The notes under the pieces: model-generated
The model's database searches: none
Seen by the model: the letters and a program-made list of their open reading frames with translations, nothing else
What the model was told of the DNA's origin: nothing
Program-made: the position numbers and the translations under genes
Assembly: GCF_963576545.1 (NCBI RefSeq)
Contig: NW_026870481.1
Coordinates: 294,182-358,181 of the forward strand
Source of the DNA: Limanda limanda
Taxonomy: Eukaryota > Chordata > Actinopteri > Pleuronectiformes > Pleuronectidae
DNA: 64,000 nucleotides
Direction: 5' to 3'
Shown: positions 1 to 64,000 of the stretch, in pieces
Numbering within the stretch: position 1 is the first letter of the stretch
Layout: every line of letters begins with the position of its first letter

Positions 1-42
1 CTAAATGGGGTAGCGCGCATCGATCGGTACCATCCTTGAGCT

Positions 43-138
43 TCTCCGACTTTCGGAAGGGTTAGGGTTAGGGTTAGGGATGAAAGCACATAGGAGAAAG
101 AGATATTCTTGAATAACTTTTTTTGTGAAGGTCGGAGA
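43..138 (+). other. Imperfect inverted repeat enclosing the telomere block (example copy)
   Basis: TCTCCGACTTTC at 43-54 is complementary to GAAGGTCGGAGA at 127-138: 11 Watson-Crick pairs and one T/G position (51 with 130). The arms flank the telomere-type block and most of the core. In B the equivalent segment CGACCTTC (536-543) is an 8-bp perfect complement of GAAGGTCG (608-615). The pairing potential therefore persists in both monomer types although their cassettes differ. Confidence 0.7.
59..79 (+). other. Telomere-type block (GGGTTA)3GGG, G-quadruplex motif (example copy)
   Basis: The A monomer has four GGG tracts separated by TTA, which is the classical telomeric quadruplex-forming sequence. 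Copies recur about every 163 bp in A runs (222-242, 385-405 and so on). Each full block holds two overlapping matches to YTAGGGTTR, the DNA site of vertebrate TRF1/TRF2 Myb domains. One degenerate copy at about 3,427-3,447 reads TTAGGGGTAGGG. Whether it folds or binds shelterin-like proteins in its own organism is unknown. Confidence 0.93.
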
Positions 139-144
139 GACTTA
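100..144 (+). other. Invariant 45-bp core shared by A and B (example copy)
   Basis: Both monomer types contain this block starting GAGATATTC and ending GAGAGACTT(G); other examples are 263-307 in A and 581-625 in B. It contains the near-palindrome TATTC-TT-GAATA, a T7 tract, and GAAGGTCGGAGA. It is the least variable part of the array. Changes are few: C for the first T of the T-tract (AACCTTTTTTG) in the left 12 kb, loss of 2 bp after the T-tract at 24-36 kb, T9 versions near 37.67 and 37.99 kb, and GAATTAC at 27,476 and 31,944. Cassettes of 118 bp (A) or 110 bp (B) separate successive cores. A protein-binding or structural role is possible but is inference only. Confidence 0.85.
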
Positions 145-163
145 CAAGTAGGCTGTACCCCCA

Positions 164-326
164 CTAAATGGGGTAGCGCGCATCGATCGGTACCATCCTT
201 GAGCTTCTCCGACTTTTGGAAGGGTTAGGGTTAGGGTTAGGGATGAAAGCACATAGGAGAAAGAGATATTCTTGAATAACTTTTTTTGTGAAGGTCGGAG
301 AGACTTGCAAGTAGGCTCTACCCCCA
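164..326 (+). repeat. Type A monomer, representative 163-bp copy
   Basis: One full A unit, taken from CTAAATGGGG to the next CTAAATGGGG. In order it holds a GC-rich start with overlapping palindromes (GCGCGC, ATCGAT, CGATCG, GGTACC), a pyrimidine-rich CTTCTCCGAC arm, the telomere-type block at 222-242, a short AAAGCACATAGGAGAAA stretch, the shared core at 263-307, and the exit segment CAAGTAGG..CCCCCA leading into the next A. When a B unit follows, the exit segment is replaced by GAAAGTGGTTGCATCTGGA. This copy has the TTTTGG variant at 217 in place of TTTCGG, one of the recurrent CpG-type changes common in the left third of the window. Confidence 0.95.
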
Positions 327-339
327 CTAAATGGGGTAG
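318..339 (+). other. 7-bp inverted repeat at the entrance of A monomers (example copy)
   Basis: CTACCCC at 318-324 and GGGGTAG at 333-339 are perfectly complementary with an 8-nt spacer CACTAAAT. A further two pairs (GC with GC) are possible beyond one mismatch. The element forms wherever an A or B exit segment is followed by an A unit, and is lost at A-to-B junctions. From about 14.75 kb rightwards many copies read GGGGTTG, which breaks one pair. CTTTACCCC copies (for example near 20,010, 46,703 and 48,784) would replace one pair with a wobble. Confidence 0.7.
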
Positions 340-489
340 CGCGCATCGATCGGTACCATCCTTGAGCTTCTCCGACTTTCGGAAGGGTTAGGGTTAGGGT
401 TAGGGATGAAAGCACATAGGAGAAAGAGATATTCTTGAATAACTTTTTTTGTGAAGGTCGGAGAGACTTGGAAAGTGGTTGCATCTGGA

Positions 490-644
490 CTAATTTGGGT
501 CCTGCGGATCGATTGGTACCATCCCCGAGCTTGTACGACCTTCGGAAGAGGTCGACCGACGAAATTCCCCCAAATCTGAGGAGATATTCTTGAATAACTT
601 TTTTTGTGAAGGTCGGAGAGACTTGCAAGTAGGCTCTACCCCCA
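490..644 (+). repeat. Type B monomer, representative 155-bp copy
   Basis: B runs from CTAATTTGGG to the next CTAAAT. It aligns with A at its start (CTAAtttGGG), at the ATCGAT..GGTACCATCC stretch, at CTTCGGAAG, and through the shared core at 581-625. In place of the telomere block and the AAAGCACATAGG stretch it has AGGTCGACCGACG and AAATTCCCCCAAATCTGAG. About 123 copies are present. Two B units are never adjacent, apart from the chimeric units followed by B. Common subtypes differ at CTGCGGAT, which also occurs as CTGCAAAT (about 5.8-36 kb and sporadically later) and CTGCAGAT (from about 32 kb rightwards). A and B are best read as diverged duplicates of one ancestral monomer. Confidence 0.94.
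536..557 (+). other. B-specific palindrome and hairpin (example copy)
   Basis: In B, CGACC at 536-540 is complementary to GGTCG at 550-554. The second arm is part of the perfect 8-bp palindrome GGTCGACC at 550-557. The palindrome marks nearly every B unit and is absent from A. Exceptions are GGTCAACC near 26,797, GGTCGAACG near 13,385 and ATGTCGACC near 36,816. Confidence 0.7.
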
Positions 645-801
645 CTAAATGGGGTAGCGCACATCGATCGGTACCATCCTTGAGCTTCTCCGACTTTCGG
701 AAGGGTTAGGGTTAGGGATGAAAGCACATAGGAGAAAGAGATATTCTTGAATAACCTTTTTTGTGAAGGTCGGAGAGACTTGCAAGTAGGCTCTACCCCC
801 A
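645..801 (+). repeat. Type A monomer, short 157-bp variant with two TTAGGG units
   Basis: This A unit has GGG followed by two TTAGGG units rather than three, so it is 6 bp shorter. Further short units start at 1927, 2728, 4817, 9637, 12044, 12364 and 12684, and more lie near 13.5, 18.6, 20.8, 22.8, 24.2, 25.8, 26.0, 27.1, 28.8 and 30.8 kb and through 31.5-35.6 kb. They are absent or rare to the right of about 36 kb. I saw no A unit with one or with four or more TTAGGG units. Confidence 0.93.
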
Positions 802-3679
802 CTAAATGGGGTAGCGCGCATCGATCGGTACCATCCTTGAGCTTCTCCGACTTTTGGAAGGGTTAGGGTTAGGGTTAGGGATGAAAGCACATAGGAGAAA
901 GAGATATTCTTGAATAACTTTTTTTGTGAAGGTCGGAGAGACTTGGAAAGTGGTTGCATCTGGACTAATTTCGGTCCTGCGGATCGATTGGTACCATCCC
1001 CGAGCTTGTACGACCTTCGGAAGAGGTCGACCGACGAAATTCCCCCAAATCTGAGGAGATATTCTTGAATAACTTTTTTTGTGAAGGTCGGAGAGACTTG
1101 CAAGTAGGCTCTACCCCCACTAAATGGGGTAGCGCACATCGATCGGTACCATCCTTGAGCTTCTCCGACTTTCGGAAGGGTTAGGGTTAGGGTTAGGGAT
1201 GAAAGCACATAGGAGAAAGAGATATTCTTGAATAACTTTTTTTGTGAAGGTCGGAGAGACTTGCAAGTAGGCTCTACCCCCACTAAATGGGGTAGCGCGC
1301 ATCGATCGGTACCATCCTTGAGCTTCTCCGACTTTCGGAAGGGTTAGGGTTAGGGTTAGGGATGAAAGCACATAGGAGAAAGAGATATTCTTGAATAACT
1401 TTTTTTGTGAAGGTCGGAGAGACTTGCAAGTAGGCTCTACCCCCACTAAATGGGGTAGCGCGCATCGATCGGTACCATCCTTGAGCTTCTCCGACTTTCG
1501 GAAGGGTTAGGGTTAGGGTTAGGGATGAAAGCACATAGGAGAAAGAGATATTCTTGAATAACTTTTTTTGTGAAGGTCGGAGAGACTTGCAAGTAGGCTC
1601 TACCCCCACTAAATGGGGTAGCGCGCATCGATCGGTACCATCCTTGAGCTTCTCCGACTTTCGGAAGGGTTAGGGTTAGGGTTAGGGATGAAAGCACATA
1701 GGAGAAAGAGATATTCTTGAATAACTTTTTTTGTGAAGGTCGGAGAGACTTGGAAAGTGGTTGCATCTGGACTAATTTGGGTCCTGCGGATCGATTGGTA
1801 CCATCCCCGAGCTTGTACGACCTTCGGAAGAGGTCGACCGACGAAATTCCCCCAAATCTGAGGAGATATTCTTGAATAACTTTTTTTGTGAAGGTCGGAG
1901 AGACTTGCAAGTAGGCTCTACCCCCACTAAATGGGGTAGCGCACATCGATCGGTACCATCCTTGAGCTTCTCCGACTTTCGGAAGGGTTAGGGTTAGGGA
2001 TGAAAGCACATAGGAGAAAGAGATATTCTTGAATAACCTTTTTTGTGAAGGTCGGAGAGACTTGCAAGTAGGCTCTACCCCCACTAAATGGGGTAGCGCG
2101 CATCGATCGGTACCATCCTTGAGCTTCTCCGACTTTTGGAAGGGTTAGGGTTAGGGTTAGGGATGAAAGCACATAGGAGAAAGAGATATTCTTGAATAAC
2201 TTTTTTTGTGAAGGTCGGAGAGACTTGGAAAGTGGTTGCATCTGGACTAATTTGGGTCCTGCGGATCGATTGGTACCATCCCCGAGCTTGTACGACCTTC
2301 GGAAGAGGTCGACCGACGAAATTCCCCCAAATCTGAGGAGATATTCTTGAATAACTTTTTTTGTGAAGGTCGGAGAGACTTGCAAGTAGGCTCTACCCCC
2401 ACTAAATGGGGTAGCGCACATCGATCGGTACTATCCTTGAGCTTCTCCGACTTTCGGAAGGGTTAGGGTTAGGGTTAGGGATGAAAGCACATAGGAGAAA
2501 GAGATATTCTTGAATAACTTTTTTTGTGAAGGTCGGAGAGACTTGCAAGTAGGCTCTACCCCCACTAAATGGGGTAGCGCGCATCGATCGGTACCATCCT
2601 TGAGCTTCTCCGACTTTTGGAAGGGTTAGGGTTAGGGTTAGGGATGAAAGCACATAGGAGAAAGAGATATTCTTGAATAACTTTTTTTGTGAAGGTCGGA
2701 GAGACTTGCAAGTAGGCTCTACCCCCACTAAATGGGGTAACGCGCATCGATCGGTACCATCCTTGAGCTTCTCCGACTTTCGGAAGGGTTAGGGTTAGGG
2801 ATGAAAGCACATAGGAGAAAGAGATATTCTTGAATAACTTTTTTTGTGAAGGTCGGAGAGACTTGCAAGTAGGCTCTACCCCCACTAAATGGGGTAACGC
2901 TCATCGATCGGTACCATCCTTGAGCTTCTCCGACTTTCGGAAGGGTTAGGGTTAGGGTTAGGGATGAAAGCACATAGGAGAAAGAGATATTCTTGAATAA
3001 CTTTTTTTGTGAAGGTCGGAGAGACTTGCAAGTAGGCTCTACCCCCACTAAATGGCGTAGCGCGCATCGATCGGTACCATCCTTGAGCTTCTCCGACTTT
3101 CGGAAGGGTTAGGGTTAGGGTTAGGGATGAAAGCACATAGGAGAAAGAGATATTCTTGAATAACTTTTTTTGTGAAGGTCGGAGAGACTTGGAAAGTGGT
3201 TGCATCTGGACTAATTTGGGTCCTGCGGATCGATTGGTACCATCCCCGAGCTTGTACGACCTTCGGAAGAGGTCGACCGACGAAATTCCCCCAAATCTGA
3301 GGAGATATTCTTGAATAACTTTTTTTGTGAAGGTCGGAGAGACTTGCAAGTAGGCTCTACCCCCACTAAATGGGGTAGCGCACATCGATCGGTACCATCC
3401 TTGAGCTTCTCCGACTTTCGGAAGGGTTAGGGTTAGGGGTAGGGATGAAAGCACATAGGAGAAAGAGATATTCTTGAATAACTTTTTTTGTGAAGGTCGG
3501 AGAGACTTGCAAGTAGGCTCTACCCCCACTAAATGGGGTAGCGCGCATCGATCGGTACCATCCTTGAGCTTCTCCGACTTTCGGAAGGGTTAGGGTTAGG
3601 GTTAGGGATGAAAGCACATAGGAGAAAGAGATATTCTTGAATAACTTTTTTTGTGAAGGTCGGAGAGACTTGAAAAGTG

Positions 3680-6600
3680 GTTGCATCTGGACTAATTTGG
3701 GTCCTGCGGATCGATTGGTACCATCCCCGAGCTTGTACGACCTTCGGAAGAGGTCGACCGACGAAATTCCCCCAAATCTGAGGAGATATTCTTGAATAAC
3801 TTTTTTTGTGAAGGTCGGAGAGACTTGCAAGTAGGCTCTACCCCCACTAAATGGGGTAGCGCACATCGATCAGTACCATCCTTGAGCTTCTCCGACTTTC
3901 GGAAGGGTTAGGGTTAGGGTTAGGGATGAAAGCACATAGGAGAAAGAGATATTCTTGAATAACCTTTTTTGTGAAGGTCGGAGAGACTTGCAAGTAGGCT
4001 CTACCCCCACTAAATGGGGTAGCGCGCATCGATCGGTACCATCCTTGAGCTTCTCCGACTTTTGGAAGGGTTAGGGTTAGGGTTAGGGATGAAAGCACAT
4101 AGGAGAAAGAGATATTCTTGAATAACTTTTTTTGTGAAGGTCGGAGAGACTTGGAAAGTGGTTGCATCTGGACTAATTTGGGTCCTGCGGATCGATTGGT
4201 ACCATCCCCGAGCTTGTACGACCTTCGGAAGAGGTCGACCGACGAAATTCCCCCAAATCTGAGGAGATATTCTTGAATAACTTTTTTTGTGAAGGTCGGA
4301 GAGACTTGCAAGTAGGCTCTACCCCCACTAAATGGGGTAGCGCACATCGATCGGTACTATCCTTGAGCTTCTCCGACTTTCGGAAGGGTTAGGGTTAGGG
4401 TTAGGGATGAAAGCACATAGGAGAAAGAGATATTCTTGAATAACTTTTTTTGTGAAGGTCGGAGAGACTTGCAAGTAGGCTCTACCCCCACTAAATGGGG
4501 TAGCGCGCATCGCTCGGTACCATCCTTGAGCTTCTCCGACTTTTGGAAGGGTTAGGGTTAGGGTTAGGGATGAAAGCACATAGGAGAAAGAGATATTCTT
4601 GAATAACTTTTTTTGTGAAGGTCGGAGAGACTTGCAAGTAGGCTCTACCCCCACTAAATGGGGTAGCGCGCATCGATCGGTACCATCCTTGAGCTTCTCC
4701 GACTTTTGGAAGGGTTAGGGTTAGGGTTAGGGATGAAAGCACATAGGAGAAAGAGATATTCTTGAATAACTTTTTTTGTGAAGGTCGGAGAGACTTGCAA
4801 GTAGGCTCTACCCCCACTAAATGGGGTAACGCGCATCGATCGGTACCATCCTTGAGCTTCTCCGACTTTCGGAAGGGTTAGGGTTAGGGATGAAAGCACA
4901 TAGGAGAAAGAGATATTCTTGAATAACTTTTTTTGTGAAGGTCGGAGAGACTTGCAAGTAGGCTCTACCCCCACTAAATGGGGTAACGCGCATCGATCGG
5001 TACCATCCTTGAGCTTCTCCGACTTTCGGAAGGGTTAGGGTTAGGGTTAGGGATGAAAGCACATAGGAGAAAGAGATATTCTTGAATAACTTTTTTTGTG
5101 AAGGTCGGAGAGACTTGCAAGTAGGCTCTACCCCCACTAAATGGGGTAGCGCGCATCGATCGGTACCATCCTTGAGCTTCTCCGACTTTCGGAAGGGTTA
5201 GGGTTAGGGTTAGGGATGAAAGCACATAGGAGAAAGAGATATTCTTGAATAACTTTTTTTGTGAAGGTCGGAGAGACTTGGAAAGTGGTTGCATCTGGAC
5301 TAATTTGGGTCCTGCGGATCGATTGGTACCATCCCCGAGCTTGTACGACCTTCGGAAGAGGTCGACCGACGAAATTCCCCCAAATCTGAGGAGATATTCT
5401 TGAATAACTTTTTTTGTGAAGGTCGGAGAGACTTGCAAGTAGGCTCTACCCCCACTAAATGGGGTAGCGCACATCGATCGGTACCATCCTTGAGCTTCTC
5501 CGACTTTCGGAAGGGTTAGGGTTAGGGTTAGGGATGAAAGCACATAGGAGAAAGAGATATTCTTGAATAACTTTTTTTGTGAAGGTCGGAGAGACTTGCA
5601 AGTAGGCTCTACCCCCACTAAATGGGGTAGCGCTCATCGATCGGTACCATCCTTGAGCTTCTCCGACTTTCGGAAGGGTTAGGGTTAGGGTTAGGGATGA
5701 AAGCACATAGGAGAAAGAGATATTCTTGAATAACTTTTTTTGTGAAGGTCGGAGAGACTTGGAAAGTGGTTGCATCTGGACTAATTTGGGTCCTGCAAAT
5801 CGATTGGTACCATCCCCGAGCTTGTACGACCTTCGGAAGGGTTAGGGTTAGGGTTAGGGATGAAAGCACATAGGAGAAAGAGATATTCTTGAATAACTTT
5901 TTTTGTGAAGGTCGGAGAGACTTGAAAAGATGTTGCATCTGGACTAATTTGGGTCCTGCGGATCGATTGGTACCATCCCCGAGCTTGTACGACCTTCGGA
6001 AGAGGTCGACCGACGAAATTCCCCCAAATCTGAGGAGATATTCTTGAATAACTTTTTTTGTGAAGGTCGGAGAGACTTGCAAGTAGGCTCTACCCCCACT
6101 AAATGGGGTAGCGCACATCGATCGGTACCATCCTTGAGCTTCTCCGACTTTCGGAAGGGTTAGGGTTAGGGTTAGGGATGAAAGCACATAGGAGAAAGAG
6201 ATATTCTTGAATAACCTTTTTTGTGAAGGTCGGAGAGACTTGCAAGTAGGCTCTACCCCCACTAAATGGGGTAGCGCGCATCGATCGGTACCATCCTTGA
6301 GCTTCTCCGACTTTTGGAAGGGTTAGGGTTAGGGTTAGGGATGAAAGCACATAGGAGAAAGAGATATTCTTGAATAACTTTTTTTGTGAAGGTCGGAGAG
6401 ACTTGGAAAGTGGTTGCATCTGGACTAATTTGGGTCCTGCGGATCGATTGGTACCATCCCCGAGCTTGTACGACCTTCGGAAGAGGTCGACCGACGAAAT
6501 TCCCCCAAATCTGAGGAGATATTCTTGAATAACTTTTTTTGTGAAGGTCGGAGAGACTTGCAAGTAGGCTCTACCCCCACTAAATGGGGTAGCGCACATC

Positions 6601-6723
6601 GATCGGTACTATCCTTGAGCTTCTCCGACTTTCGGAAGGGTTAGGGTTAGGGTTAGGGATGAAAGCACATAGGAGAAAGAGATATTCTTGAATAACTTTT
6701 TTTGTGAAGGTCGGAGAGACTTG
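3680..6723 (+). repeat. Duplicated higher-order block, copy 1 (offset 4,820)
   Basis: The order of monomers and their private variants matches 8,500-11,543 at a constant offset of 4,820 bp. Shared marks include ATCAGTACC at about 3,869, CGCTCGGTACC at about 4,511, two GTAACGC units near 4.83 and 4.99 kb, and the chimeric unit at 5,781. The copies differ at a few points: near 5,633 this copy has GCTCATC where the other has GCGCATC, and near 5,928 it has GAAAAGATG where the other has GAAAAGTGG. The match ends where this copy continues with B (6,743) and the other with A (11,563). Confidence 0.88.
5781..5943 (+). repeat. Chimeric B/A monomer, copy 1
   Basis: The first half is B (CTAATTTGGGTCCTGCAAAT..CGACC) and the second half is A (telomere block, AAAGCACATAGG, core), giving a 163-bp unit. 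The switch lies within TTCGGAAG at 5,832-5,839, which both parents share. It is followed by a normal B unit (5,944), a juxtaposition not otherwise seen. This is the expected product of unequal or ectopic exchange at a short homology. Confidence 0.9.
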
Positions 6724-7223
6724 GAAAGTGGTTGCATCTGGACTAATTTGGGTCCTGCGGATCGATTGGTACCATCCCCGAGCTTGTACGACCTTCGGAA
6801 GAGGTCGACCGACGAAATTCCCCCAAATCTGAGGAGATATTCTTGAATAACTTTTTTTGTGAAGGTCGGAGAGACTTGCAAGTAGGCTCTACCCCCACTA
6901 AATGGGGTAGCGCACATCGATCGGTACCATCCTTGAGCTTCTCCGACTTTCGGAAGGGTTAGGGTTAGGGTTAGGGATGAAAGCACATAGGAGAAAGAGA
7001 TATTCTTGAATAACTTTTTTTGTGAAGGTCGGAGAGACTTGCAAGTAGGCTCTACCCCCACTAAATGGGGTAGCGCGCATCGATCGGTACCATCCTTGAG
7101 CTTCTCCGACTTTCGGAAGGGTTAGGGTTAGGGTTAGGGATGAAAGCACATAGGAGAAAGAGATATTCTTGAATAACTTTTTTTGTGAAGGTCGGAGAGA
7201 CTTGGAAAGTGGTTGCATCTGGA

Positions 7224-7386
7224 CTAATTTGGGTCCTGCAAATCGATTGGTACCATCCCCGAGCTTGTACGACCTTCGGAAGGGTTAGGGTTAGGGTTAG
7301 GGATGAAAGCACATAGGAGAAAGAGATATTCTTGAATAACTTTTTTTGTGAAGGTCGGAGAGACTTGAAAAGTGGTTGCATCTGGA
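7224..7386 (+). repeat. Chimeric B/A monomer, copy 2
   Basis: Same B-to-A switch as the unit at 5,781, with the joint inside TTCGGAAG at 7,275-7,282. It lies in a partial third copy of the surrounding block: offset +1,443 from copy 1 and -3,377 from copy 3, matching from about 6.9 to 8.2 kb. The B unit that follows starts at 7,387. Confidence 0.9.
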
Positions 7387-8499
7387 CTAATTTGGGTCCT
7401 GCGGATCGATTGGTACCATCCCCGAGCTTGTACGACCTTCGGAAGAGGTCGACCGACGAAATTCCCCCAAATCTGAGGAGATATTCTTGAATAACTTTTT
7501 TTGTGAAGGTCGGAGAGACTTGCAAGTAGGCTCTACCCCCACTAAATGGGGTAGCGCACATCGATCGGTACCATCCTTGAGCTTCTCCGACTTTCGGAAG
7601 GGTTAGGGTTAGGGTTAGGGATGAAAGCACATAGGAGAAAGAGATATTCTTGAATAACCTTTTTTGTGAAGGTCGGAGAGACTTGCAAGTAGGCTCTACC
7701 CCCACTAAATGGGGTAGCGCGCATCGATCGGTACCATCCTTGAGCTTCTCCGACTTTTGGAAGGGTTAGGGTTAGGGTTAGGGATGAAAGCACATAGGAG
7801 AAAGAGATATTCTTGAATAACTTTTTTTGTGAAGGTCGGAGAGACTTGGAAAGTGGTTGCATCTGGACTAATTTGGGTCCTGCGGATCGATTGGTACCAT
7901 CCCCGAGCTTGTACGACCTTCGGAAGAGGTCGACCGACGAAATTCCCCCAAATCTGAGGAGATATTCTTGAATAACTTTTTTTGTGAAGGTCGGAGAGAC
8001 TTGCAAGTAGGCTCTACCCCCACTAAATGGGGTAGCGCACATCGATCGGTACTATCCTTGAGCTTCTCCGACTTTCGGAAGGGTTAGGGTTAGGGTTAGG
8101 GATGAAAGCACATAGGAGAAAGAGATATTCTTGAATAACTTTTTTTGTGAAGGTCGGAGAGACTTGCAAGTAGGCTCTACCCCCACTAAATGGGGTAGCG
8201 CGCATCGATCGGTACCATCCTTGAGCTTCTCCGACTTTTGGAAGGGTTAGGGTTAGGGTTAGGGATGAAAGCACATAGGAGAAAGAGATATTCTTGAATA
8301 ACCTTTTTTGTGAAGGTCGGAGAGACTTGCAAGTAGGCTCTACCCCCACTAAATGGGGTAGCGCGCATCGATCGGTACCATCCTTGAGCTTCTCCGACTT
8401 TTGGAAGGGTTAGGGTTAGGGTTAGGGATGAAAGCACATAGGAGAAAGAGATATTCTTGAATAACTTTTTTTGTGAAGGTCGGAGAGACTTGGAAAGTG

Positions 8500-11400
8500 G
8501 TTGCATCTGGACTAATTTGGGTCCTGCGGATCGATTGGTACCATCCCCGAGCTTGTACGACCTTCGGAAGAGGTCGACCGACGAAATTCCCCCAAATCTG
8601 AGGAGATATTCTTGAATAACTTTTTTTGTGAAGGTCGGAGAGACTTGCAAGTAGGCTCTACCCCCACTAAATGGGGTAGCGCACATCGATCAGTACCATC
8701 CTTGAGCTTCTCCGACTTTCGGAAGGGTTAGGGTTAGGGTTAGGGATGAAAGCACATAGGAGAAAGAGATATTCTTGAATAACCTTTTTTGTGAAGGTCG
8801 GAGAGACTTGCAAGTAGGCTCTACCCCCACTAAATGGGGTAGCGCGCATCGATCGGTACCATCCTTGAGCTTCTCCGACTTTTGGAAGGGTTAGGGTTAG
8901 GGTTAGGGATGAAAGCACATAGGAGAAAGAGATATTCTTGAATAACTTTTTTTGTGAAGGTCGGAGAGACTTGGAAAGTGGTTGCATCTGGACTAATTTG
9001 GGTCCTGCGGATCGATTGGTACCATCCCCGAGCTTGTACGACCTTCGGAAGAGGTCGACCGACGAAATTCCCCCAAATCTGAGGAGATATTCTTGAATAA
9101 CTTTTTTTGTGAAGGTCGGAGAGACTTGCAAGTAGGCTCTACCCCCACTAAATGGGGTAGCGCACATCGATCGGTACTATCCTTGAGCTTCTCCGACTTT
9201 CGGAAGGGTTAGGGTTAGGGTTAGGGATGAAAGCACATAGGAGAAAGAGATATTCTTGAATAACTTTTTTTGTGAAGGTCGGAGAGACTTGCAAGTAGGC
9301 TCTACCCCCACTAAATGGGGTAGCGCGCATCGCTCGGTACCATCCTTGAGCTTCTCCGACTTTTGGAAGGGTTAGGGTTAGGGTTAGGGATGAAAGCACA
9401 TAGGAGAAAGAGATATTCTTGAATAACTTTTTTTGTGAAGGTCGGAGAGACTTGCAAGTAGGCTCTACCCCCACTAAATGGGGTAGCGCGCATCGATCGG
9501 TACCATCCTTGAGCTTCTCCGACTTTTGGAAGGGTTAGGGTTAGGGTTAGGGATGAAAGCACATAGGAGAAAGAGATATTCTTGAATAACTTTTTTTGTG
9601 AAGGTCGGAGAGACTTGCAAGTAGGCTCTACCCCCACTAAATGGGGTAACGCGCATCGATCGGTACCATCCTTGAGCTTCTCCGACTTTCGGAAGGGTTA
9701 GGGTTAGGGATGAAAGCACATAGGAGAAAGAGATATTCTTGAATAACTTTTTTTGTGAAGGTCGGAGAGACTTGCAAGTAGGCTCTACCCCCACTAAATG
9801 GGGTAACGCGCATCGATCGGTACCATCCTTGAGCTTCTCCGACTTTCGGAAGGGTTAGGGTTAGGGTTAGGGATGAAAGCACATAGGAGAAAGAGATATT
9901 CTTGAATAACTTTTTTTGTGAAGGTCGGAGAGACTTGCAAGTAGGCTCTACCCCCACTAAATGGGGTAGCGCGCATCGATCGGTACCATCCTTGAGCTTC
10001 TCCGACTTTCGGAAGGGTTAGGGTTAGGGTTAGGGATGAAAGCACATAGGAGAAAGAGATATTCTTGAATAACTTTTTTTGTGAAGGTCGGAGAGACTTG
10101 GAAAGTGGTTGCATCTGGACTAATTTGGGTCCTGCGGATCGATTGGTACCATCCCCGAGCTTGTACGACCTTCGGAAGAGGTCGACCGACGAAATTCCCC
10201 CAAATCTGAGGAGATATTCTTGAATAACTTTTTTTGTGAAGGTCGGAGAGACTTGCAAGTAGGCTCTACCCCCACTAAATGGGGTAGCGCACATCGATCG
10301 GTACCATCCTTGAGCTTCTCCGACTTTCGGAAGGGTTAGGGTTAGGGTTAGGGATGAAAGCACATAGGAGAAAGAGATATTCTTGAATAACTTTTTTTGT
10401 GAAGGTCGGAGAGACTTGCAAGTAGGCTCTACCCCCACTAAATGGGGTAGCGCGCATCGATCGGTACCATCCTTGAGCTTCTCCGACTTTCGGAAGGGTT
10501 AGGGTTAGGGTTAGGGATGAAAGCACATAGGAGAAAGAGATATTCTTGAATAACTTTTTTTGTGAAGGTCGGAGAGACTTGGAAAGTGGTTGCATCTGGA
10601 CTAATTTGGGTCCTGCAAATCGATTGGTACCATCCCCGAGCTTGTACGACCTTCGGAAGGGTTAGGGTTAGGGTTAGGGATGAAAGCACATAGGAGAAAG
10701 AGATATTCTTGAATAACTTTTTTTGTGAAGGTCGGAGAGACTTGAAAAGTGGTTGCATCTGGACTAATTTGGGTCCTGCGGATCGATTGGTACCATCCCC
10801 GAGCTTGTACGACCTTCGGAAGAGGTCGACCGACGAAATTCCCCCAAATCTGAGGAGATATTCTTGAATAACTTTTTTTGTGAAGGTCGGAGAGACTTGC
10901 AAGTAGGCTCTACCCCCACTAAATGGGGTAGCGCACATCGATCGGTACCATCCTTGAGCTTCTCCGACTTTCGGAAGGGTTAGGGTTAGGGTTAGGGATG
11001 AAAGCACATAGGAGAAAGAGATATTCTTGAATAACCTTTTTTGTGAAGGTCGGAGAGACTTGCAAGTAGGCTCTACCCCCACTAAATGGGGTAGCGCGCA
11101 TCGATCGGTACCATCCTTGAGCTTCTCCGACTTTTGGAAGGGTTAGGGTTAGGGTTAGGGATGAAAGCACATAGGAGAAAGAGATATTCTTGAATAACTT
11201 TTTTTGTGAAGGTCGGAGAGACTTGGAAAGTGGTTGCATCTGGACTAATTTGGGTCCTGCGGATCGATTGGTACCATCCCCGAGCTTGTACGACCTTCGG
11301 AAGAGGTCGACCGACGAAATTCCCCCAAATCTGAGGAGATATTCTTGAATAACTTTTTTTGTGAAGGTCGGAGAGACTTGCAAGTAGGCTCTACCCCCAC

Positions 11401-41567: not shown

Positions 41568-41619
41568 CTAAATGGGGTAGCGCGCATCGATCGGTACCAT
41601 CCTTGAGCTTCTCCGACTT

Positions 41620-44010: not shown

Positions 44011-44032
44011 CATCTTTGAGCTTCTCCGACTT

Positions 44033-54100: not shown

Positions 54101-55210
54101 CATCGATCAGTACCATCCTTGAGCTTCTCCGACTTTCGGAAGGGTTAGGGTTAGGGTTAGGGATGAAAGCACATAGGAGAAAGAGATATTCTTGAATAAC
54201 TTTTTTTGTGAAGGTCGGAGAGACTTGGAAAGTGGTTGCATCTGGACTAATTTGGGTCCTGCGGATCGATTGGTACCATCCCCGAGCTTGTACGACCTTC
54301 GGAAGAGGTCGACCGACGAAATTCCCCCAAATCTGAGGAGATATTCTTGAATAACTTTTTTTGTGAAGGTCGGAGAGACTTGCAAGTAGGCTCTACCCCC
54401 ACTAAATGGGGTTGCGCGCATCGATCAGTACCATCCTTGAGCTTCTCCGACTTTCGGAAGGGTTAGGGTTAGGGTTAGGGATGAAAGCACATAGGAGAAA
54501 GAGATATTCTTGAATAACTTTTTTTGTGAAGGTCGGAGAGACTTGCAAGTAGGCTCTACCCCCACTAAATGGGGTAGCGCGCATCGATCGGTACCATCCT
54601 TGAGCTTCTCCGACTTTCGGAAGGGTTAGGGTTAGGGTTAGGGATGAAAGCACATAGGAGAAAGAGATATTCTTGAATAACTTTTTTTGTGAAGGTCGGA
54701 GAGACTTGCAAGTAGGCTCTACCCCCACTAAATGGGGTAGCGCGCATCGATCGGTACCATCCTTGAGCTTCTCCGACTTTCGGAAGGGTTAGGGTTAGGG
54801 TTAGGGATGAAAGCACATAGGAGAAAGAGATATTCTTGAATAACTTTTTTTGTGAAGGTCGGAGAGACTTGCAAGTAGGCTCTACCCCCACTAAATGGGG
54901 TAGCGCGCATCGATCGGTACCATCCTTGAGCTTCTCCGACTTTCGGAAGGGTTAGGGTTAGGGTTAGGGATGAAAGCACATAGGAGAAAGAGATATTCTT
55001 GAATAACTTTTTTTGTGAAGGTCGGAGAGACTTGGAAAGTGGTTGCATCTGGACTAATTTGGGTCCTGCGGATCGATTGGTACCATCCCCGAGCTTGTAC
55101 GACCTTCGGAAGAGGTCGACCGACGAAATTCCCCCAAATCTGAGGAGATATTCTTGAATAACTTTTTTTGTGAAGGTCGGAGAGACTTGCAAGTAGGCTC
55201 TACCCCCACT
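50110..55210 (+). repeat. Duplicated block of about 5.1 kb, copy 1 (offset 5,617)
   Basis: Matches 55,730-60,830. Shared marks are CTGCAGAT (about 50,411), CATCCACGAGC (about 50,748 and 52,672), GGTACTATCC (about 51,225), TCTGAACTAA (about 51,519 and 53,443) and GATCAGTACC (about 54,105 and 54,424). It is internally repetitive: the order GGGGTTG, CTGCAGAT, CATCCACGAGC, TCTGAACTAA recurs about every 1.9 kb (offset 1,926 between 50,411 and 52,337). Confidence 0.88.
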
Positions 55211-55729
55211 AAATGGGGTAGCGCGCATCGATCGGTACCATCCTTGAGCTTCTCCGACTTTCGGAAGGGTTAGGGTTAGGGTTAGGGATGAAAGCACATA
55301 GGAGAAAGAGATATTCTTGAATAACTTTTTTTGTGAAGGTCGGAGAGACTTGCAAGTAGGCTCTACCCCCACTAAATGGGGTAGCGCGCATCGATCGGTA
55401 CCATCCTTGAGCTTCTCCGACTTTCGGAAGGGTTAGGGTTAGGGTTAGGGATGAAAGCACATAGGAGAAAGAGATATTCTTGAATAACTTTTTTTGTGAA
55501 GGTCGGAGAGACTTGCAAGTAGGCTCTACCCCCACTAAATGGGGTAGCGCGCATCGATCGGTACCATCCTTGAGCTTCTCCGACTTTCGGAAGGGTTAGG
55601 GTTAGGGTTAGGGATGAAAGCACATAGGAGAAAGAGATATTCTTGAATAACTTTTTTTGTGAAGGTCGGAGAGACTTGGAAAGTGGTTGCATCTGGACTA
55701 ATTTGGGTCCTGCGGATCGATTGGTACCA

Positions 55730-58700
55730 TCCCCGAGCTTGTACGACCTTCGGAAGAGGTCGACCGACGAAATTCCCCCAAATCTGAGGAGATATTCTTG
55801 AATAACTTTTTTTGTGAAGGTCGGAGAGACTTGCAAGTAGGCTCTACCCCCACTAAATGGGGTAGCGCGCATCGATCGGTACCATCCTTGAGCTTCTCCG
55901 ACTTTCGGAAGGGTTAGGGTTAGGGTTAGGGATGAAAGCACATAGGAGAAAGAGATATTCTTGAATAACTTTTTTTGTGAAGGTCGGAGAGACTTGGAAA
56001 GTGGTTGCATCTGGACTAATTTGGGTCCTGCAGATCGATTGGTACCATCCCCGAGCTTGTACGACCTTCGGAAGAGGTCGACCGACGAAATTCCCCCAAA
56101 TCTGAGGAGATATTCTTGAATAACTTTTTTTGTGAAGGTCGGAGAGACTTGCAAGTAGGCTCTACCCCCACTAAATGGGGTTGCGCGCATCGATCGGTAC
56201 CATCCTTGAGCTTCTCCGACTTTCGGAAGGGTTAGGGTTAGGGTTAGGGATGAAAGCACATAGGAGAAAGAGATATTCTTGAATAACTTTTTTTGTGAAG
56301 GTCGGAGAGACTTGGAAAGTGGTTGCATCTGGACTAATTTGGGTCCTGCGGATCGATTGGTACCATCCACGAGCTTGTACGACCTTCGGAAGAGGTCGAC
56401 CGACGAAATTCCCCCAAATCTGAGGAGATATTCTTGAATAACTTTTTTTGTGAAGGTCGGAGAGACTTGCAAGTAGGCTCTACCCCCACTAAATGGGGTA
56501 GCGCGCATCGATCGGTACCATCCTTGAGCTTCTCCGACTTTCGGAAGGGTTAGGGTTAGGGTTAGGGATGAAAGCACATAGGAGAAAGAGATATTCTTGA
56601 ATAACTTTTTTTGTGAAGGTCGGAGAGACTTGCAAGTAGGCTCTACCCCCACTAAATGGGGTTGCGCGCATCGATCGGTACCATCCTTGAGCTTCTCCGA
56701 CTTTCGGAAGGGTTAGGGTTAGGGTTAGGGATGAAAGCACATAGGAGAAAGAGATATTCTTGAATAACTTTTTTTGTGAAGGTCGGAGAGACTTGCAAGT
56801 AGGCTCTACCCCCACTAAATGGGGTAGCGCGCATCGATCGGTACTATCCTTGAGCTTCTCCGACTTTCGGAAGGGTTAGGGTTAGGGTTAGGGATGAAAG
56901 CACATAGGAGAAAGAGATATTCTTGAATAACTTTTTTTGTGAAGGTCGGAGAGACTTGCAAGTAGGCTCTACCCCCACTAAATGGGGTAGCGCGCATCGA
57001 TCGGTACCATCCTTGAGCTTCTCCGACTTTCGGAAGGGTTAGGGTTAGGGTTAGGGATGAAAGCACATAGGAGAAAGAGATATTCTTGAATAACTTTTTT
57101 TGTGAAGGTCGGAGAGACTTGGAAAGTGGTTGCATCTGAACTAATTTGGGTCCTGCGGATCGATTGGTACCATCCCCGAGCTTGTACGACCTTCGGAAGA
57201 GGTCGACCGACGAAATTCCCCCAAATCTGAGGAGATATTCTTGAATAACTTTTTTTGTGAAGGTCGGAGAGACTTGCAAGTAGGCTCTACCCCCACTAAA
57301 TGGGGTTGCGCGCATCGATCGGTACCATCCTTGAGCTTCTCCGACTTTCGGAAGGGTTAGGGTTAGGGTTAGGGATGAAAGCACATAGGAGAAAGAGATA
57401 TTCTTGAATAACTTTTTTTGTGAAGGTCGGAGAGACTTGCAAGTAGGCTCTACCCCCACTAAATGGGGTAGCGCGCATCGATCGGTACCATCCTTGAGCT
57501 TCTCCGACTTTCGGAAGGGTTAGGGTTAGGGTTAGGGATGAAAGCACATAGGAGAAAGAGATATTCTTGAATAACTTTTTTTGTGAAGGTCGGAGAGACT
57601 TGGAAAGTGGTTGCATCTGGACTAATTTGGGTCCTGCGGATCGATTGGTACCATCCCCGAGCTTGTACGACCTTCGGAAGAGGTCGACCGACGAAATTCC
57701 CCCAAATCTGAGGAGATATTCTTGAATAACTTTTTTTGTGAAGGTCGGAGAGACTTGCAAGTAGGCTCTACCCCCACTAAATGGGGTTGCGCGCATCGAT
57801 CGGTACCATCCTTGAGCTTCTCCGACTTTCGGAAGGGTTAGGGTTAGGGTTAGGGATGAAAGCACATAGGAGAAAGAGATATTCTTGAATAACTTTTTTT
57901 GTGAAGGTCGGAGAGACTTGGAAAGTGGTTGCATCTGGACTAATTTGGGTCCTGCAGATCGATTGGTACCATCCCCGAGCTTGTACGACCTTCGGAAGAG
58001 GTCGACCGACGAAATTCCCCCAAATCTGAGGAGATATTCTTGAATAACTTTTTTTGTGAAGGTCGGAGAGACTTGCAAGTAGGCTCTACCCCCACTAAAT
58101 GGGGTTGCGCGCATCGATCGGTACCATCCTTGAGCTTCTCCGACTTTCGGAAGGGTTAGGGTTAGGGTTAGGGATGAAAGCACATAGGAGAAAGAGATAT
58201 TCTTGAATAACTTTTTTTGTGAAGGTCGGAGAGACTTGGAAAGTGGTTGCATCTGGACTAATTTGGGTCCTGCGGATCGATTGGTACCATCCACGAGCTT
58301 GTACGACCTTCGGAAGAGGTCGACCGACGAAATTCCCCCAAATCTGAGGAGATATTCTTGAATAACTTTTTTTGTGAAGGTCGGAGAGACTTGCAAGTAG
58401 GCTCTACCCCCACTAAATGGGGTAGCGCGCATCGATCGGTACCATCCTTGAGCTTCTCCGACTTTCGGAAGGGTTAGGGTTAGGGTTAGGGATGAAAGCA
58501 CATAGGAGAAAGAGATATTCTTGAATAACTTTTTTTGTGAAGGTCGGAGAGACTTGCAAGTAGGCTCTACCCCCACTAAATGGGGTTGCGCGCATCGATC
58601 GGTACCATCCTTGAGCTTCTCCGACTTTCGGAAGGGTTAGGGTTAGGGTTAGGGATGAAAGCACATAGGAGAAAGAGATATTCTTGAATAACTTTTTTTG

Positions 58701-60830
58701 TGAAGGTCGGAGAGACTTGCAAGTAGGCTCTACCCCCACTAAATGGGGTAGCGCGCATCGATCGGTACCATCCTTGAGCTTCTCCGACTTTCGGAAGGGT
58801 TAGGGTTAGGGTTAGGGATGAAAGCACATAGGAGAAAGAGATATTCTTGAATAACTTTTTTTGTGAAGGTCGGAGAGACTTGCAAGTAGGCTCTACCCCC
58901 ACTAAATGGGGTAGCGCGCATCGATCGGTACCATCCTTGAGCTTCTCCGACTTTCGGAAGGGTTAGGGTTAGGGTTAGGGATGAAAGCACATAGGAGAAA
59001 GAGATATTCTTGAATAACTTTTTTTGTGAAGGTCGGAGAGACTTGGAAAGTGGTTGCATCTGAACTAATTTGGGTCCTGCGGATCGATTGGTACCATCCC
59101 CGAGCTTGTACGACCTTCGGAAGAGGTCGACCGACGAAATTCCCCCAAATCTGAGGAGATATTCTTGAATAACTTTTTTTGTGAAGGTCGGAGAGACTTG
59201 CAAGTAGGCTCTACCCCCACTAAATGGGGTTGCGCGCATCGATCGGTACCATCCTTGAGCTTCTCCGACTTTCGGAAGGGTTAGGGTTAGGGTTAGGGAT
59301 GAAAGCACATAGGAGAAAGAGATATTCTTGAATAACTTTTTTTGTGAAGGTCGGAGAGACTTGCAAGTAGGCTCTACCCCCACTAAATGGGGTAGCGCGC
59401 ATCGATCGGTACCATCCTTGAGCTTCTCCGACTTTCGGAAGGGTTAGGGTTAGGGTTAGGGATGAAAGCACATAGGAGAAAGAGATATTCTTGAATAACT
59501 TTTTTTGTGAAGGTCGGAGAGACTTGGAAAGTGGTTGCATCTGGACTAATTTGGGTCCTGCGGATCGATTGGTACCATCCCCGAGCTTGTACGACCTTCG
59601 GAAGAGGTCGACCGACGAAATTCCCCCAAATCTGAGGAGATATTCTTGAATAACTTTTTTTGTGAAGGTCGGAGAGACTTGCAAGTAGGCTCTACCCCCA
59701 CTAAATGGGGTTGCGCGCATCGATCAGTACCATCCTTGAGCTTCTCCGACTTTCGGAAGGGTTAGGGTTAGGGTTAGGGATGAAAGCACATAGGAGAAAG
59801 AGATATTCTTGAATAACTTTTTTTGTGAAGGTCGGAGAGACTTGGAAAGTGGTTGCATCTGGACTAATTTGGGTCCTGCGGATCGATTGGTACCATCCCC
59901 GAGCTTGTACGACCTTCGGAAGAGGTCGACCGACGAAATTCCCCCAAATCTGAGGAGATATTCTTGAATAACTTTTTTTGTGAAGGTCGGAGAGACTTGC
60001 AAGTAGGCTCTACCCCCACTAAATGGGGTTGCGCGCATCGATCAGTACCATCCTTGAGCTTCTCCGACTTTCGGAAGGGTTAGGGTTAGGGTTAGGGATG
60101 AAAGCACATAGGAGAAAGAGATATTCTTGAATAACTTTTTTTGTGAAGGTCGGAGAGACTTGCAAGTAGGCTCTACCCCCACTAAATGGGGTAGCGCGCA
60201 TCGATCGGTACCATCCTTGAGCTTCTCCGACTTTCGGAAGGGTTAGGGTTAGGGTTAGGGATGAAAGCACATAGGAGAAAGAGATATTCTTGAATAACTT
60301 TTTTTGTGAAGGTCGGAGAGACTTGCAAGTAGGCTCTACCCCCACTAAATGGGGTAGCGCGCATCGATCGGTACCATCCTTGAGCTTCTCCGACTTTCGG
60401 AAGGGTTAGGGTTAGGGTTAGGGATGAAAGCACATAGGAGAAAGAGATATTCTTGAATAACTTTTTTTGTGAAGGTCGGAGAGACTTGCAAGTAGGCTCT
60501 ACCCCCACTAAATGGGGTAGCGCGCATCGATCGGTACCATCCTTGAGCTTCTCCGACTTTCGGAAGGGTTAGGGTTAGGGTTAGGGATGAAAGCACATAG
60601 GAGAAAGAGATATTCTTGAATAACTTTTTTTGTGAAGGTCGGAGAGACTTGGAAAGTGGTTGCATCTGGACTAATTTGGGTCCTGCGGATCGATTGGTAC
60701 CATCCCCGAGCTTGTACGACCTTCGGAAGAGGTCGACCGACGAAATTCCCCCAAATCTGAGGAGATATTCTTGAATAACTTTTTTTGTGAAGGTCGGAGA
60801 GACTTGCAAGTAGGCTCTACCCCCACTAAA
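55730..60830 (+). repeat. Duplicated block of about 5.1 kb, copy 2 (offset 5,617)
   Basis: Partner of 50,110-55,210. Every listed mark recurs at +5,617 (CTGCAGAT about 56,028, GGTACTATCC about 56,842, TCTGAACTAA about 57,136, GATCAGTACC about 59,722 and 60,041). I found no difference within the block at the marks I compared, so the duplication looks young. It ends where this copy has GGGGTTGTGCGC (about 60,833) and copy 1 has GGGGTAGCGCGC. Confidence 0.88.
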
Positions 60831-61319
60831 TGGGGTTGTGCGCATCGATCGGTACCATCCTTGAGCTTCTCCGACTTTCGGAAGGGTTAGGGTTAGGGTT
60901 AGGGATGAAAGCACATAGGAGAAAGAGATATTCTTGAATAACTTTTTTTGTGAAGGTCGGAGAGACTTGCAAGTAGGCTCTACCCCCACTAAATGGGGTA
61001 GCGCGCATCGATCGGTACCATCCTTGAGCTTCTCCGACTTTCGGAAGGGTTAGGGTTAGGGTTAGGGATGAAAGCACATAGGAGAAAGAGATATTCTTGA
61101 ATAACTTTTATTGTGAAGGTCGGAGAGACTTGGAAAGTGGTTGCATCTGGACTAATTTGGGTCCTGCGGATCGATTGGTACCATCCCCGAGCTTGTACGA
61201 CCTTCGGAAGAGGTCGACCGACGAAATTCCCCCAAATCTGAGGAGATATTCTTGAATAACTTTTTTTGTGAAGGTCGGAGAGACTTGCAAGTAGGCTCTA
61301 CCCCCACTAAATGGGGTAG

Positions 61320-64000
61320 CGCGCATCGATCGGTACCATCCTTGAGCTTCTCCGACTTTCGGAAGGGTTAGGGTTAGGGTTAGGGATGAAAGCACATAGG
61401 AGAAAGAGATATTCTTGAATAACTTTTTTTGTGAAGGTCGGAGAGACTTGCAAGTAGGCTCTACCCCCACTAAATGGGGTAGCGCGCATCGATCGGAACC
61501 ATCCTTGAGCTTCTCCGACTTTCGGAAGGGTTAGGGTTAGGGTTAGGGATGAAAGCACATAGGAGAAAGAGATATTCTTGAATAACTTTTTTTGTGAAGG
61601 TCGGAGAGACTTGCAAGTAGGCTTTACCCCCACTAAATGGGGTAGCGCGCATCGATCGATACCATCCTTGAGCTTCTCCGACTTTCGGAAGGGTTAGGGT
61701 TAGGGTTAGGGATGAAAGCACATAGGAGAAAGAGATATTCTTGAATAACTTTTTTTGTGAAGGTCGGAGAGACTTGCAAGTAGGCTCTACCCCCACTAAA
61801 TGGGGTAGCGCGCATCGATCGGTACCATCCTTGAGCTTCTCCGACTTTCGGAAGGGTTAGGGTTAGGGTTAGGGATGAAAGCACATAGGAGAAAGAGATA
61901 TTCTTGAATAACTTTTTTTGTGAAGGTCGGAGAGACTTGCAAGTAGGCTCTACCCCCACTAAATGGGGTAGCGCGCATCGATCGGTACCATCCTTGAGCT
62001 TCTCCGACTTTCGGAAGGGTTAGGGTTAGGGTTAGGGATGAAAGCACATAGGAGAAAGAGATATTCTTGAATAACTTTTTTTGTGAAGGTCGGAGAGACT
62101 TGGAAAGTGGTTGCATCTGAACTAATTTGGGTCCTGCGGATCGATTGGTACTATCCCCGAGCTTGTACGACCTTCGGAAGAGGTCGACCGACGAAATTCC
62201 CCCAAATCTGAGGAGATATTCTTGAATAACTTTTTTTGTGAAGGTCGGAGAGACTTGCAAGTAGGCTTTACCCCCACTAAATGGGGTAGCGCGCATCGAT
62301 CGGTACCATCCTTGAGCTTCTCCGACTTTCGGAAGGGTTAGGGTTAGGGTTAGGGATGAAAGCACATAGGAGAAAGAGATATTCTTGAATAACTTTTTTT
62401 GTGAAGGTCGGAGAGACTTGCAAGTAGGCTCTACCCCCACTAAATGGGGTAGCGCGCATCGATCGGTACCATCCTTGAGCTTCTCCGACTTTCGGAAGGG
62501 TTAGGGTTAGGGTTAGGGATGAAAGCACATAGGAGAAAGAGATATTCTTGAATAACTTTTTTTGTGAAGGTCGGAGAGACTTGGAAAGTGGTTGCATCTG
62601 GACTAATTTGGGTCCTGCGGATCGATTGGTACCATCCCCGAGCTTGTACGACCTTCGGAAGAGGTCGACCGACGAAATTCCCCCAAATCTGAGGAGATAT
62701 TCTTGAATAACTTTTTTTGTGAAGGTCGGAGAGACTTGCAAGTAGGCTCTACCCCCACTAAATGGGGTAGCGCGCATCGATCGGTACCATCCTTGAGCTT
62801 CTCCGACTTTCGGAAGGGTTAGGGTTAGGGTTAGGGATGAAAGCACATAGGAGAAAGAGATATTCTTGAATAACTTTTTTTGTGAAGGTCGGAGAGACTT
62901 GGAAAGTGGTTGCATCTGGACTAATTTGGGTCCTGCAAATCGATTGGTACCATCCCCGAGCTTGTACGACCTTCGGAAGAGGTCGACCGACGAAATTCCC
63001 CCAAATCTGAGGAGATATTCTTGAATAACTTTTTTTGTGAAGGTCGGAGAGACTTGCAAGTAGGCTCTACCCCCACTAAATGGGGTAGCGCGCATCGATC
63101 GGTACCATCCTTGAGCTTCTCCGACTTTCGGAAGGGTTAGGGTTAGGGTTAGGGATGAAAGCACATAGGAGAAAGAGATATTCTTGAATAACTTTTTTTG
63201 TGAAGGTCGGAGAGACTTGGAAAGTGGTTGCATCTGGACTAATTTGGGTCCTGCAGATCGATTGGTACCATCCCCGAGCTTGTACGACCTTCGGAAGAGG
63301 TCGACCGACGAAATTCCCCCAAATCTGAGGAGATATTCTTGAATAACTTTTTTTGTGAAGGTCGGAGAGACTTGCAAGTAGGCTCTACCCCCACTAAATG
63401 GGGTTGCGCGCATCGATCGGTACCATCCTTGAGCTTCTCCGACTTTCGGAAGGGTTAGGGTTAGGGTTAGGGATGAAAGCACATAGGAGAAAGAGATATT
63501 CTTGAATAACTTTTTTTGTGAAGGTCGGAGAGACTTGGAAAGTGGTTGCATCTGGACTAATTTGGGTCCTGCGGATCGATTGGTACCATCCACGAGCTTG
63601 TACGACCTTCGGAAGAGGTCGACCGACGAAATTCCCCCAAATCTGAGGAGATATTCTTGAATAACTTTTTTTGTGAAGGTCGGAGAGACTTGCAAGTAGG
63701 CTCTACCCCCACTAAATGGGGTAGCGCGCATCGATCGGTACCATCCTTGAGCTTCTCCGACTTTCGGAAGGGTTAGGGTTAGGGTTAGGGATGAAAGCAC
63801 ATAGGAGAAAGAGATATTCTTGAATAACTTTTTTTGTGAAGGTCGGAGAGACTTGCAAGTAGGCTCTACCCCCACTAAATGGGGTTGCGCGCATCGATCG
63901 GTACCATCCTTGAGCTTCTCCGACTTTCGGAAGGGTTAGGGTTAGGGTTAGGGATGAAAGCACATAGGAGAAAGAGATATTCTTGAATAACTTTTTTTGT
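61320..64000 (+). repeat. Long-range duplicated block, copy 2 (offset 12,840), cut by window end
   Basis: Repeats 48,480-51,160 with all subtype marks in order and continues beyond the window. A private change is CGGAACC near 61,495. The last monomer, an A unit of the GGGGTTG subtype starting at 63,875, is cut at its core by the window end. The short stretch 60,831-61,319 just before this block is ordinary A and B monomers with one TTTTATTG core near 61,110. Confidence 0.87.

What the first reader, a model, noticed from the sequence alone, without database searches (positions are those of the whole stretch)
1..64000. Satellite monomer that carries a telomere motif in about two-thirds of its copies
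About 275 of some 400 monomers contain two or three TTAGGG units plus a leading GGG, all in one orientation. This amounts to roughly 0.8 kTTAGGG units spread over 64 kb at nearly nucleosome spacing, unlike a true telomere (contiguous) or an ordinary interstitial telomeric block. I do not recognise this A/B satellite from known families. Dispersed sites of this kind could attract telomere-binding proteins to internal heterochromatin or serve as seeds for chromosome-end healing.
Basis: partly seen in the sequence, partly recalled or inferred. Interest (0 to 1): 0.75.

Follow-up and report, generated by a model that had tools for sequence, protein, structure and literature searches.

The report
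Fish chromosome-end satellite with telomere seeds
About a tenth of this (probably fish) genome is a repeat that lies next to chromosome tips, and two thirds of its units carry a small piece of telomere pointing outward from which a real telomere could start; that it works this way is likely but not proven.

Summary
All 64 kb are an A/B satellite (A mostly 163 bp, B 155 bp); 276 of 399 complete monomers carry 2-3 TTAGGG, all on one strand (805 TTAGGG, 0 CCCTAA). The window is the end of unplaced contig C113 of a 717-Mb assembly, very probably a teleost.

The arrays are chromosome-end repeats, not internal heterochromatin. The satellite box has 445,592 exact copies (about 72 Mb, 10%, extrapolated). 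TTAGGG points outward in 11 of 11 informative places. In contig C30 the array runs into 52 TTAGGG at the contig end, and in C192 into at least 1.5 kb of telomere near the contig start; both joints sit exactly at an A monomer's TTAGGG. That search asked only for such joints; most searches for other joints did not complete.

The array's inner edge shows the likely origin: a 410-428-bp unit whose internal deletion (about 250 bp) put a telomeric remnant directly behind GGAAGG.

Best reading: a subtelomeric (and possibly short-arm) satellite whose A monomers are polar telomere seeds. Seeding is inferred. Closest kinds: the Ectocarpus 98-bp subtelomeric satellite; by position, mouse TLC repeats. New variant of a known kind.

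The parts
1..64000 (+). Whole window: outer part of the A/B satellite (here called TSat) array of contig C113 (G000:C113:294182-358181; array sampled from about 100,000 to the contig end at 358,181)
100..262 (+). Example A monomer, 163 bp, 3 TTAGGG
222..242 (+). Example seed: GGGTTAGGGTTAGGGTTAGGG (G-quadruplex-type sequence; 2 TRF-type YTAGGGTTR sites, motif recalled)
426..580 (+). Example B monomer, 155 bp, no TTAGGG; identical to A over the first 45 bp
581..737 (+). Example short A monomer, 157 bp, 2 TTAGGG

Best explanation
This is a chromosome-end satellite, subtelomeric and possibly also on short arms, of what is very probably a teleost. SHOWN: very abundant, strictly polar arrays; joints between array and telomere at an A monomer's TTAGGG in two contigs; long-form monomers at the inner edge of two arrays. 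INFERRED: it began as an A/B dimer in which A was a 410-428-bp unit ending in a few TTAGGG; an internal deletion of about 250 bp fused GGAAGG to that telomeric end, giving a short A with 1-3 TTAGGG, which then spread outward by unequal exchange and telomere-mediated copying. INFERRED: because every A monomer reads TTAGGG 5'->3' outward, an end that is broken or resected back to an A monomer offers a primer that telomerase can extend or that a telomere can recombine with. The array would then be a reserve of in-register seeds from which a shortened chromosome can be capped again.
For: Outward polarity in 11 of 11 informative places: right ends of C1, C2, C5, C13; C113 and C144 (non-satellite to TSat); C35, C210, C270 (sat2 to TSat); C30 and C192 (telomere tract) (p 0.001). 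21 of 21 contigs with TSat at both sampled ends keep one strand. Array to telomere: C30, 52 TTAGGG to the contig end; C192, at least 256 CCCTAA (1,536 bp) read at C192:3226-4761, then TSat at 12 of 12 sampled points up to its end at 1.257 Mb. In C74 and C332 an A monomer runs into 37 and 32 TTAGGG, then into sat3 at its own GGGTTAGG. Long-form A units at C1:41.7528 Mb and at the inner edge of this array. Few point changes in seed and tail: 4 of 41 sites vary against 30 of 76 in the middle.
Against: The joint query required the seed, so '4 of 4 at a seed' holds by construction. One other joint register was answered (109 places, 100 listed); it shows a place inside TSat contig C192 (1106221) that I could not read. 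The registers BGGG... and HGTTAGGG... were asked and not answered; the remaining three were not asked. The telomere of C3's left end starts in sat4 at AATTGTT|AGGG, without a TTAGGG seed, so seeds are not required in this genome. C192:1-3225 was not read, so that its telomere tract is terminal is inferred. Low variation of seed and tail may only reflect a recent common origin. No functional data.
Confidence: 0.58

Rival explanations
1. Passenger: the TTAGGG is a fossil. The satellite arose beside telomeric remnants, kept some of them with the deletion and was amplified by ordinary unequal exchange. Polarity only reflects descent from one oriented ancestor copied between chromosome ends, and the joints lie where recombination between identical TTAGGG tracts happens to fall.
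For: The long-form unit already ends in 2-4 TTAGGG; neighbouring sat3, sat4 and a 173-bp repeat also carry telomere-like motifs; exact repeats of 1 kb and more show recent local copying.
Against: Does not by itself predict that the array meets the telomere at the seed; explains low seed variation only through recent origin.
Confidence: 0.3
2. Docking platform: TTAGGG in A binds TRF-type proteins and helps to build chromosome-end heterochromatin, clustering or pairing; capping at seeds is a side effect.
For: 528 YTAGGGTTR sites (motif recalled) in 64 kb at 155-163-bp spacing.
Against: No binding data; B monomers and long-form units do without, or with fewer.
Confidence: 0.07
3. Centromeric satellite of this species.
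For: Length near a nucleosome, megabase arrays, and TSat occupies one end of C1, C2, C5 and C13 whose other end is sat3 or sat4, the place that sat2 takes in other chromosomes.
Against: sat2 (177 bp) is at 14 of 38 sampled chromosome ends and lies inward of TSat in 3 of 3 contigs that hold both; TSat meets telomere directly; on C1 and C113 its inner neighbours are telomere-like repeats and arm DNA.
Confidence: 0.04
4. Assembly artefact.
For: The window lies at a contig end in a repeat that is hard to assemble.
Against: The repeat is at a sampled end of 32 of 41 unplaced contigs not chosen for it and of 4 large contigs, with varied monomers and one polarity.
Confidence: 0.01

Closest known systems
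Ectocarpus subtelomeric satellite, about 98 bp (PMC11541908, passages seen)
   Same: Tandem satellite beside the telomere with TTAGGG inside each monomer; its authors cite the idea, from Chlamydomonas, that such motifs are seeds for telomere healing.
   Different: There TTAGGG sits at three separate places in every monomer and arrays hold a few to over 100 copies. Here it is one tract of 2-3 units in two thirds of the monomers, the monomer is 155-163 bp, and arrays hold thousands of copies (about 10% of the assembly). No sequence comparison was made.
Chlamydomonas subtelomeric satellites (name Sultan recalled; the paper was not held; known here only through PMC11541908)
   Same: Telomere-like motifs in subtelomeric satellites, proposed as healing seeds.
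   Different: Green alga; details not seen.
Mouse TLC repeats (PMC12597820, passages seen)
   Same: Tandem repeat between telomere and centromeric satellite on one-armed chromosomes.
   Different: Mouse arrays are 6-60 kb per chromosome, preceded by an L1 and the passages mention no TTAGGG within the monomer; here arrays reach over 1 Mb and join the telomere directly at TTAGGG.
Great-ape StSat and marmoset MarmoSAT (PMC7767330, passages seen)
   Same: Abundant satellites near telomeres.
   Different: AT-rich 32-bp and 171-bp units; no TTAGGG seed mentioned in the passages.
Yeast SiRTAs (PMC10055226, abstract and section list seen)
   Same: Sequences that favour new telomere addition, enriched in subtelomeres.
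   Different: Defined by assay in yeast; here only sequence evidence.
Interstitial telomeric sequences, het-ITS (PMC6410037, PMC9498494, passages seen)
   Same: Large amounts of TTAGGG outside the telomere.
   Different: Those are blocks of telomere-like repeats; here 2-3 units lie within each A monomer.

Membership tests
Subtelomeric satellite with telomeric motif in the monomer (Ectocarpus type) | Tandem array of a satellite monomer | tested here: met
Subtelomeric satellite with telomeric motif in the monomer (Ectocarpus type) | Telomeric motif inside the monomer | tested here: met
   276 of 399 monomers; not in the 123 others
Subtelomeric satellite with telomeric motif in the monomer (Ectocarpus type) | Array adjacent to the telomere | tested here: met
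   C30 at the contig end; C192 with at least 1.5 kb of telomere tract, contig start not read
Subtelomeric satellite with telomeric motif in the monomer (Ectocarpus type) | Almost only at chromosome ends | tested here: inconclusive
   On C1 two exact box copies lie outside the terminal array; the list stops within C1 at 100 places
Subtelomeric satellite with telomeric motif in the monomer (Ectocarpus type) | Sequence homology to the Ectocarpus satellite | not tested
   Ectocarpus monomer not available
Mouse TLC-type repeat | Lies between telomere and centromeric satellite, one polarity | tested here: inconclusive
   TSat outward of sat2 in C35, C210, C270, but that sat2 is centromeric is inferred
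Contiguous interstitial telomeric block (het-ITS) | Long uninterrupted TTAGGG or TTAGGG-like run | tested here: not met
   tracts of 2-3 units in the window
Telomere-addition hotspot (SiRTA-like) | New telomeres form at the site after a break | not testable with these tools
   Only the possible end product, telomere at an A seed, is seen

The most novel reading that the evidence does not exclude
A vertebrate keeps far more telomeric DNA in a satellite than in its telomeres (about 0.9 million TTAGGG units by extrapolation, against some 38,000 if 46 telomeres are 5 kb each), as reserves of hundreds of kilobases to over a megabase of in-register, outward-pointing seeds. Chromosome ends can be cut back anywhere within the array and re-capped at the next A monomer, and array length is set by cycles of loss, seeded re-capping and telomere-mediated copying between ends.
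Probability: 0.33. Interest if true: 0.82.

Novelty: new variant of a known kind. Interest (0 to 1): 0.62.

Why it matters
Seeds for telomere healing inside subtelomeric satellites have been proposed for algae. Here the same layout appears in what is very probably a vertebrate, at very large scale, with assembled array-to-telomere joints and with steps of its origin still readable at the array edge. That makes the idea testable by mapping telomere joints in long reads and by breaking an array. It also raises the question how telomere proteins and telomerase cope when a satellite holds many more TTAGGG units than the telomeres.

Tried and rejected
Rfam at gathering thresholds on the window: 0 matches. 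Protein search with a frame of the array: 17 candidates, none significant. Box 18-mer in bacterial and archaeal contigs: 13 stretches with one match each, taken as chance and not looked into; viral contigs: none. A 1,281-base piece against phage records: no match. A brown-alga origin, suggested by the Ectocarpus paper, was dropped: the start of C113 carries a V-set exon nearest to CD276 and butyrophilins, and a chromosome-end frame has relatives named from Platichthys flesus, Epinephelus lanceolatus, Centropristis striata, Oryzias latipes and Larimichthys crocea. The species was not identified. A first diversity count used an anchor setting that skipped imperfect anchors and was redone.

Not completed: an unbiased list of array-to-telomere joints. 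The place C192:1106221 lies in a TSat contig and was not returned by the seed query; I did not see its sequence.

Full report
WHAT IS THERE. The window is one uninterrupted tandem array. 399 complete monomers fall into A (mostly 163 bp, some 157 or 155) and B (155 bp), which are identical over the first 45 bp and alignable up to GGAAG. A then carries GGGTTAGGGTTAGGG(TTAGGG) and a 20-bp tail; B has a different end. 276 of 399 monomers carry TTAGGG; there are 805 TTAGGG and no CCCTAA, against about 27 and 8 expected from base composition. The order of A and B is irregular, with local repeats of about 30-35 monomers and exact repeats of 1 kb or more at spacings such as 5,617 bp, as recent unequal exchange would leave.

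WHERE IT LIES. The window is G000:C113:294182-358181 and ends at the contig end. The genome has 717,375,683 bases in 336 contigs. The large contigs whose lengths I saw (C1-C16, C20, C22, C23) run from 41.8 to 12.3 Mb; C24 has 0.3 Mb. The start of C113 is not satellite and carries a V-set exon nearest to CD276 and butyrophilins and a BEL/Pao element. With a chromosome-end frame whose named relatives are teleost proteins, the source is very probably a teleost. I do not know the species.

HOW MUCH. The 18-base box GAGATATTCTTGAATAAC has 238,163 + 207,429 = 445,592 exact copies. At the window's rate (396 exact boxes in about 400 monomers) this is about 450,000 monomers, 72 Mb, 10% of the assembly (extrapolated). 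A B-specific 19-mer has 126,885 exact copies. (TTAGGG)3 has 317,062 places. Of 41 unplaced contigs sampled without being chosen for it, 32 have the satellite at a sampled end (for nine of the 41 only the start was sampled). C113, C30, C74, C192 and C332 were chosen for it and are left out of that count.

CHROMOSOME ENDS. I sampled both ends of 19 of the 23 large contigs (not C17, C18, C19, C21). Of 38 ends: sat2 (177-bp repeat) 14, telomere 7, sat4 (about 2,088-bp repeat) 5, TSat 4 (right ends of C1, C2, C5, C13), sat3 (946-bp repeat) 4, unclassified 3, withheld 1. No sampled large contig has sat2 at both ends; the four with TSat at one end have sat3 or sat4 at the other. sat2 is a candidate centromere repeat of one-armed chromosomes; this is inference. 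TSat occurs both outward of sat2 (C35, C210, C270) and outward of arm or telomere-like DNA (C1, C113).

POLARITY. Where an outside can be told, TTAGGG points to it: 4 of 4 large-contig ends, 2 of 2 contigs going from non-satellite DNA into TSat (C113, C144), 3 of 3 with sat2 and TSat, 2 of 2 with telomere tract beside TSat at a contig end (C30, C192). 21 of 21 contigs with TSat at both sampled ends show one strand at the two ends. C74 and C332 were not counted because their inner side cannot be told.

JOINTS WITH TELOMERE. A pattern for an A left flank running into at least six TTAGGG has four places. C30: TSat at 1-300 and at 216,000, then 52 TTAGGG to the contig end. C192: 256 CCCTAA read at 3226-4761 (bases 1-3225 were not read), then TSat at 12 of 12 sampled points to the end at 1.257 Mb. 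C74 and C332: an A monomer, 37 and 32 TTAGGG, then sat3, whose edge holds GGGTTAGG itself. The query could only find such joints. Against a general rule, the telomere at C3's left end starts in sat4 at AATTGTT|AGGG where the unbroken repeat reads AATTGTTTTG: about three bases of fit were enough there. One other register was answered (109 places, 100 listed, among them C192:1106221, unread); two were asked and not answered and three not asked.

ORIGIN. At C1:41,752,800-41,754,800 and at C113:98,000-104,000, the inner edge of the window's own array, A-type units are 410-428 bp long (5 of 5 complete long units seen): nearly the same first 121 bp, then GGGGTCGAACGAGC and about 250 bp more, and an end with CACGG, TTAGGG units and a tail like CTAAAAGCACATAGGAGAAG. 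On C113 they are followed by short A units of 158, 158, 163, 151, 163 and 158 bp with 2, 2, 3, 1, 3 and 2 TTAGGG and the tail ATAAAAGC, alternating with B. Single samples further out show long-form ends again at 110, 116 and 118 kb and a window-type A at 114 kb, so the edge is a mixture. The simplest path is a deletion joining GGAAGG to the telomeric remnant, changes in TTAGGG number, and spread of short A. The direction of time is inferred from edge position. In 524 A monomers from 12 pieces (window and 11 loci) the tract has 0.00027 non-consensus letters per site, the tail 0.00038, the middle 0.0091, the box 0.0019 (the box served as anchor and is not a fair comparison); 4 of 41 tract-and-tail sites vary against 30 of 76 middle sites (p 0.0006, sites taken as independent). 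Unit number does vary (2, 3, rarely 4).

HOW IT MOST LIKELY WORKS. A broken or eroded end resected to an A monomer offers a 3' strand ending in GGGTTAGGG, the natural primer for telomerase (general knowledge) and a match for any telomere. With A in two of three monomers the next seed is a few hundred bases inward at most in the window. Polarity and the two joints are what this predicts; neither proves it. The passenger reading explains most of the same facts and keeps 0.3.

KNOWN KINDS. Ectocarpus has a 98-bp subtelomeric satellite with TTAGGG at three places in each monomer, and its authors cite the seed idea from Chlamydomonas (PMC11541908, passages; PMC12477816, passages, uses the same arrays). 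Mouse TLC repeats have a like position (PMC12597820, passages), StSat and MarmoSAT lie near telomeres (PMC7767330, passages), yeast SiRTAs are enriched in subtelomeres (PMC10055226, abstract), and interstitial telomeric sequences are reviewed in PMC6410037 and PMC9498494 (passages). No paper describing this satellite came up in ten searches of the open-licence library, one of them for its letters (two unrelated papers); subscription papers and repeat databases were not searchable.

VERDICT. A real, very large, polar, telomere-adjacent satellite, very probably of a teleost, with telomere seeds in two thirds of its monomers: new variant of a known kind. Identity and position are well supported, the origin fairly, the seeding function plausibly.

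Noticed in passing
L029, L031, L033, L037, L043, L049 and other contig ends of G000: sat2, a 177-bp tandem repeat (two halves of about 89 bp), at 14 of 38 sampled large-contig ends: candidate centromere repeat.
   Followed up: partly
L024, L027, L050, L118 (sat3); L030, L034, L044, L092, L096 (sat4): Two further chromosome-end tandem repeats with units of about 946 and 2,088 bp, both holding short CCCTAA/TTAGGG motifs with outward polarity where read.
   Followed up: partly
L028:5022-5050 (G000:C3 left end): About 5 kb of telomere starts in sat4 at a site that shares only GTT with the telomere repeat: looks like an old healing event without a seed.
   Followed up: partly
L048:1-1575 minus; similar frames in L026 and L032: Reading frame near chromosome ends with relatives in several teleosts (85% to an unnamed ENA protein, 75% over part of it to Platichthys flesus); a related frame in L032 has a weak GDSL-lipase match below its cut-off. 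Perhaps ORF1 of a non-LTR element that sits near telomeric repeats.
   Followed up: partly
L022 (G000:C113:1-10000): BEL/Pao retrotransposon frames and a V-set immunoglobulin exon at the inner end of the window's contig.
   Followed up: no
G000:C1:68712-69002 (in L026): Divergent satellite copies on the minus strand (pointing outward) near the left end of C1, within a stretch rich in telomeric tracts.
   Followed up: no
window 1-64000: Nested recent duplications: exact repeats of 1 kb or more at spacings 5617, 12840, 3377, 4820 and 4780 bp.
   Followed up: no
G000:C192:1106221-1106255 minus: A tract of at least five TTAGGG inside a satellite contig that the seed-joint query did not return; sequence not read.
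   Followed up: no
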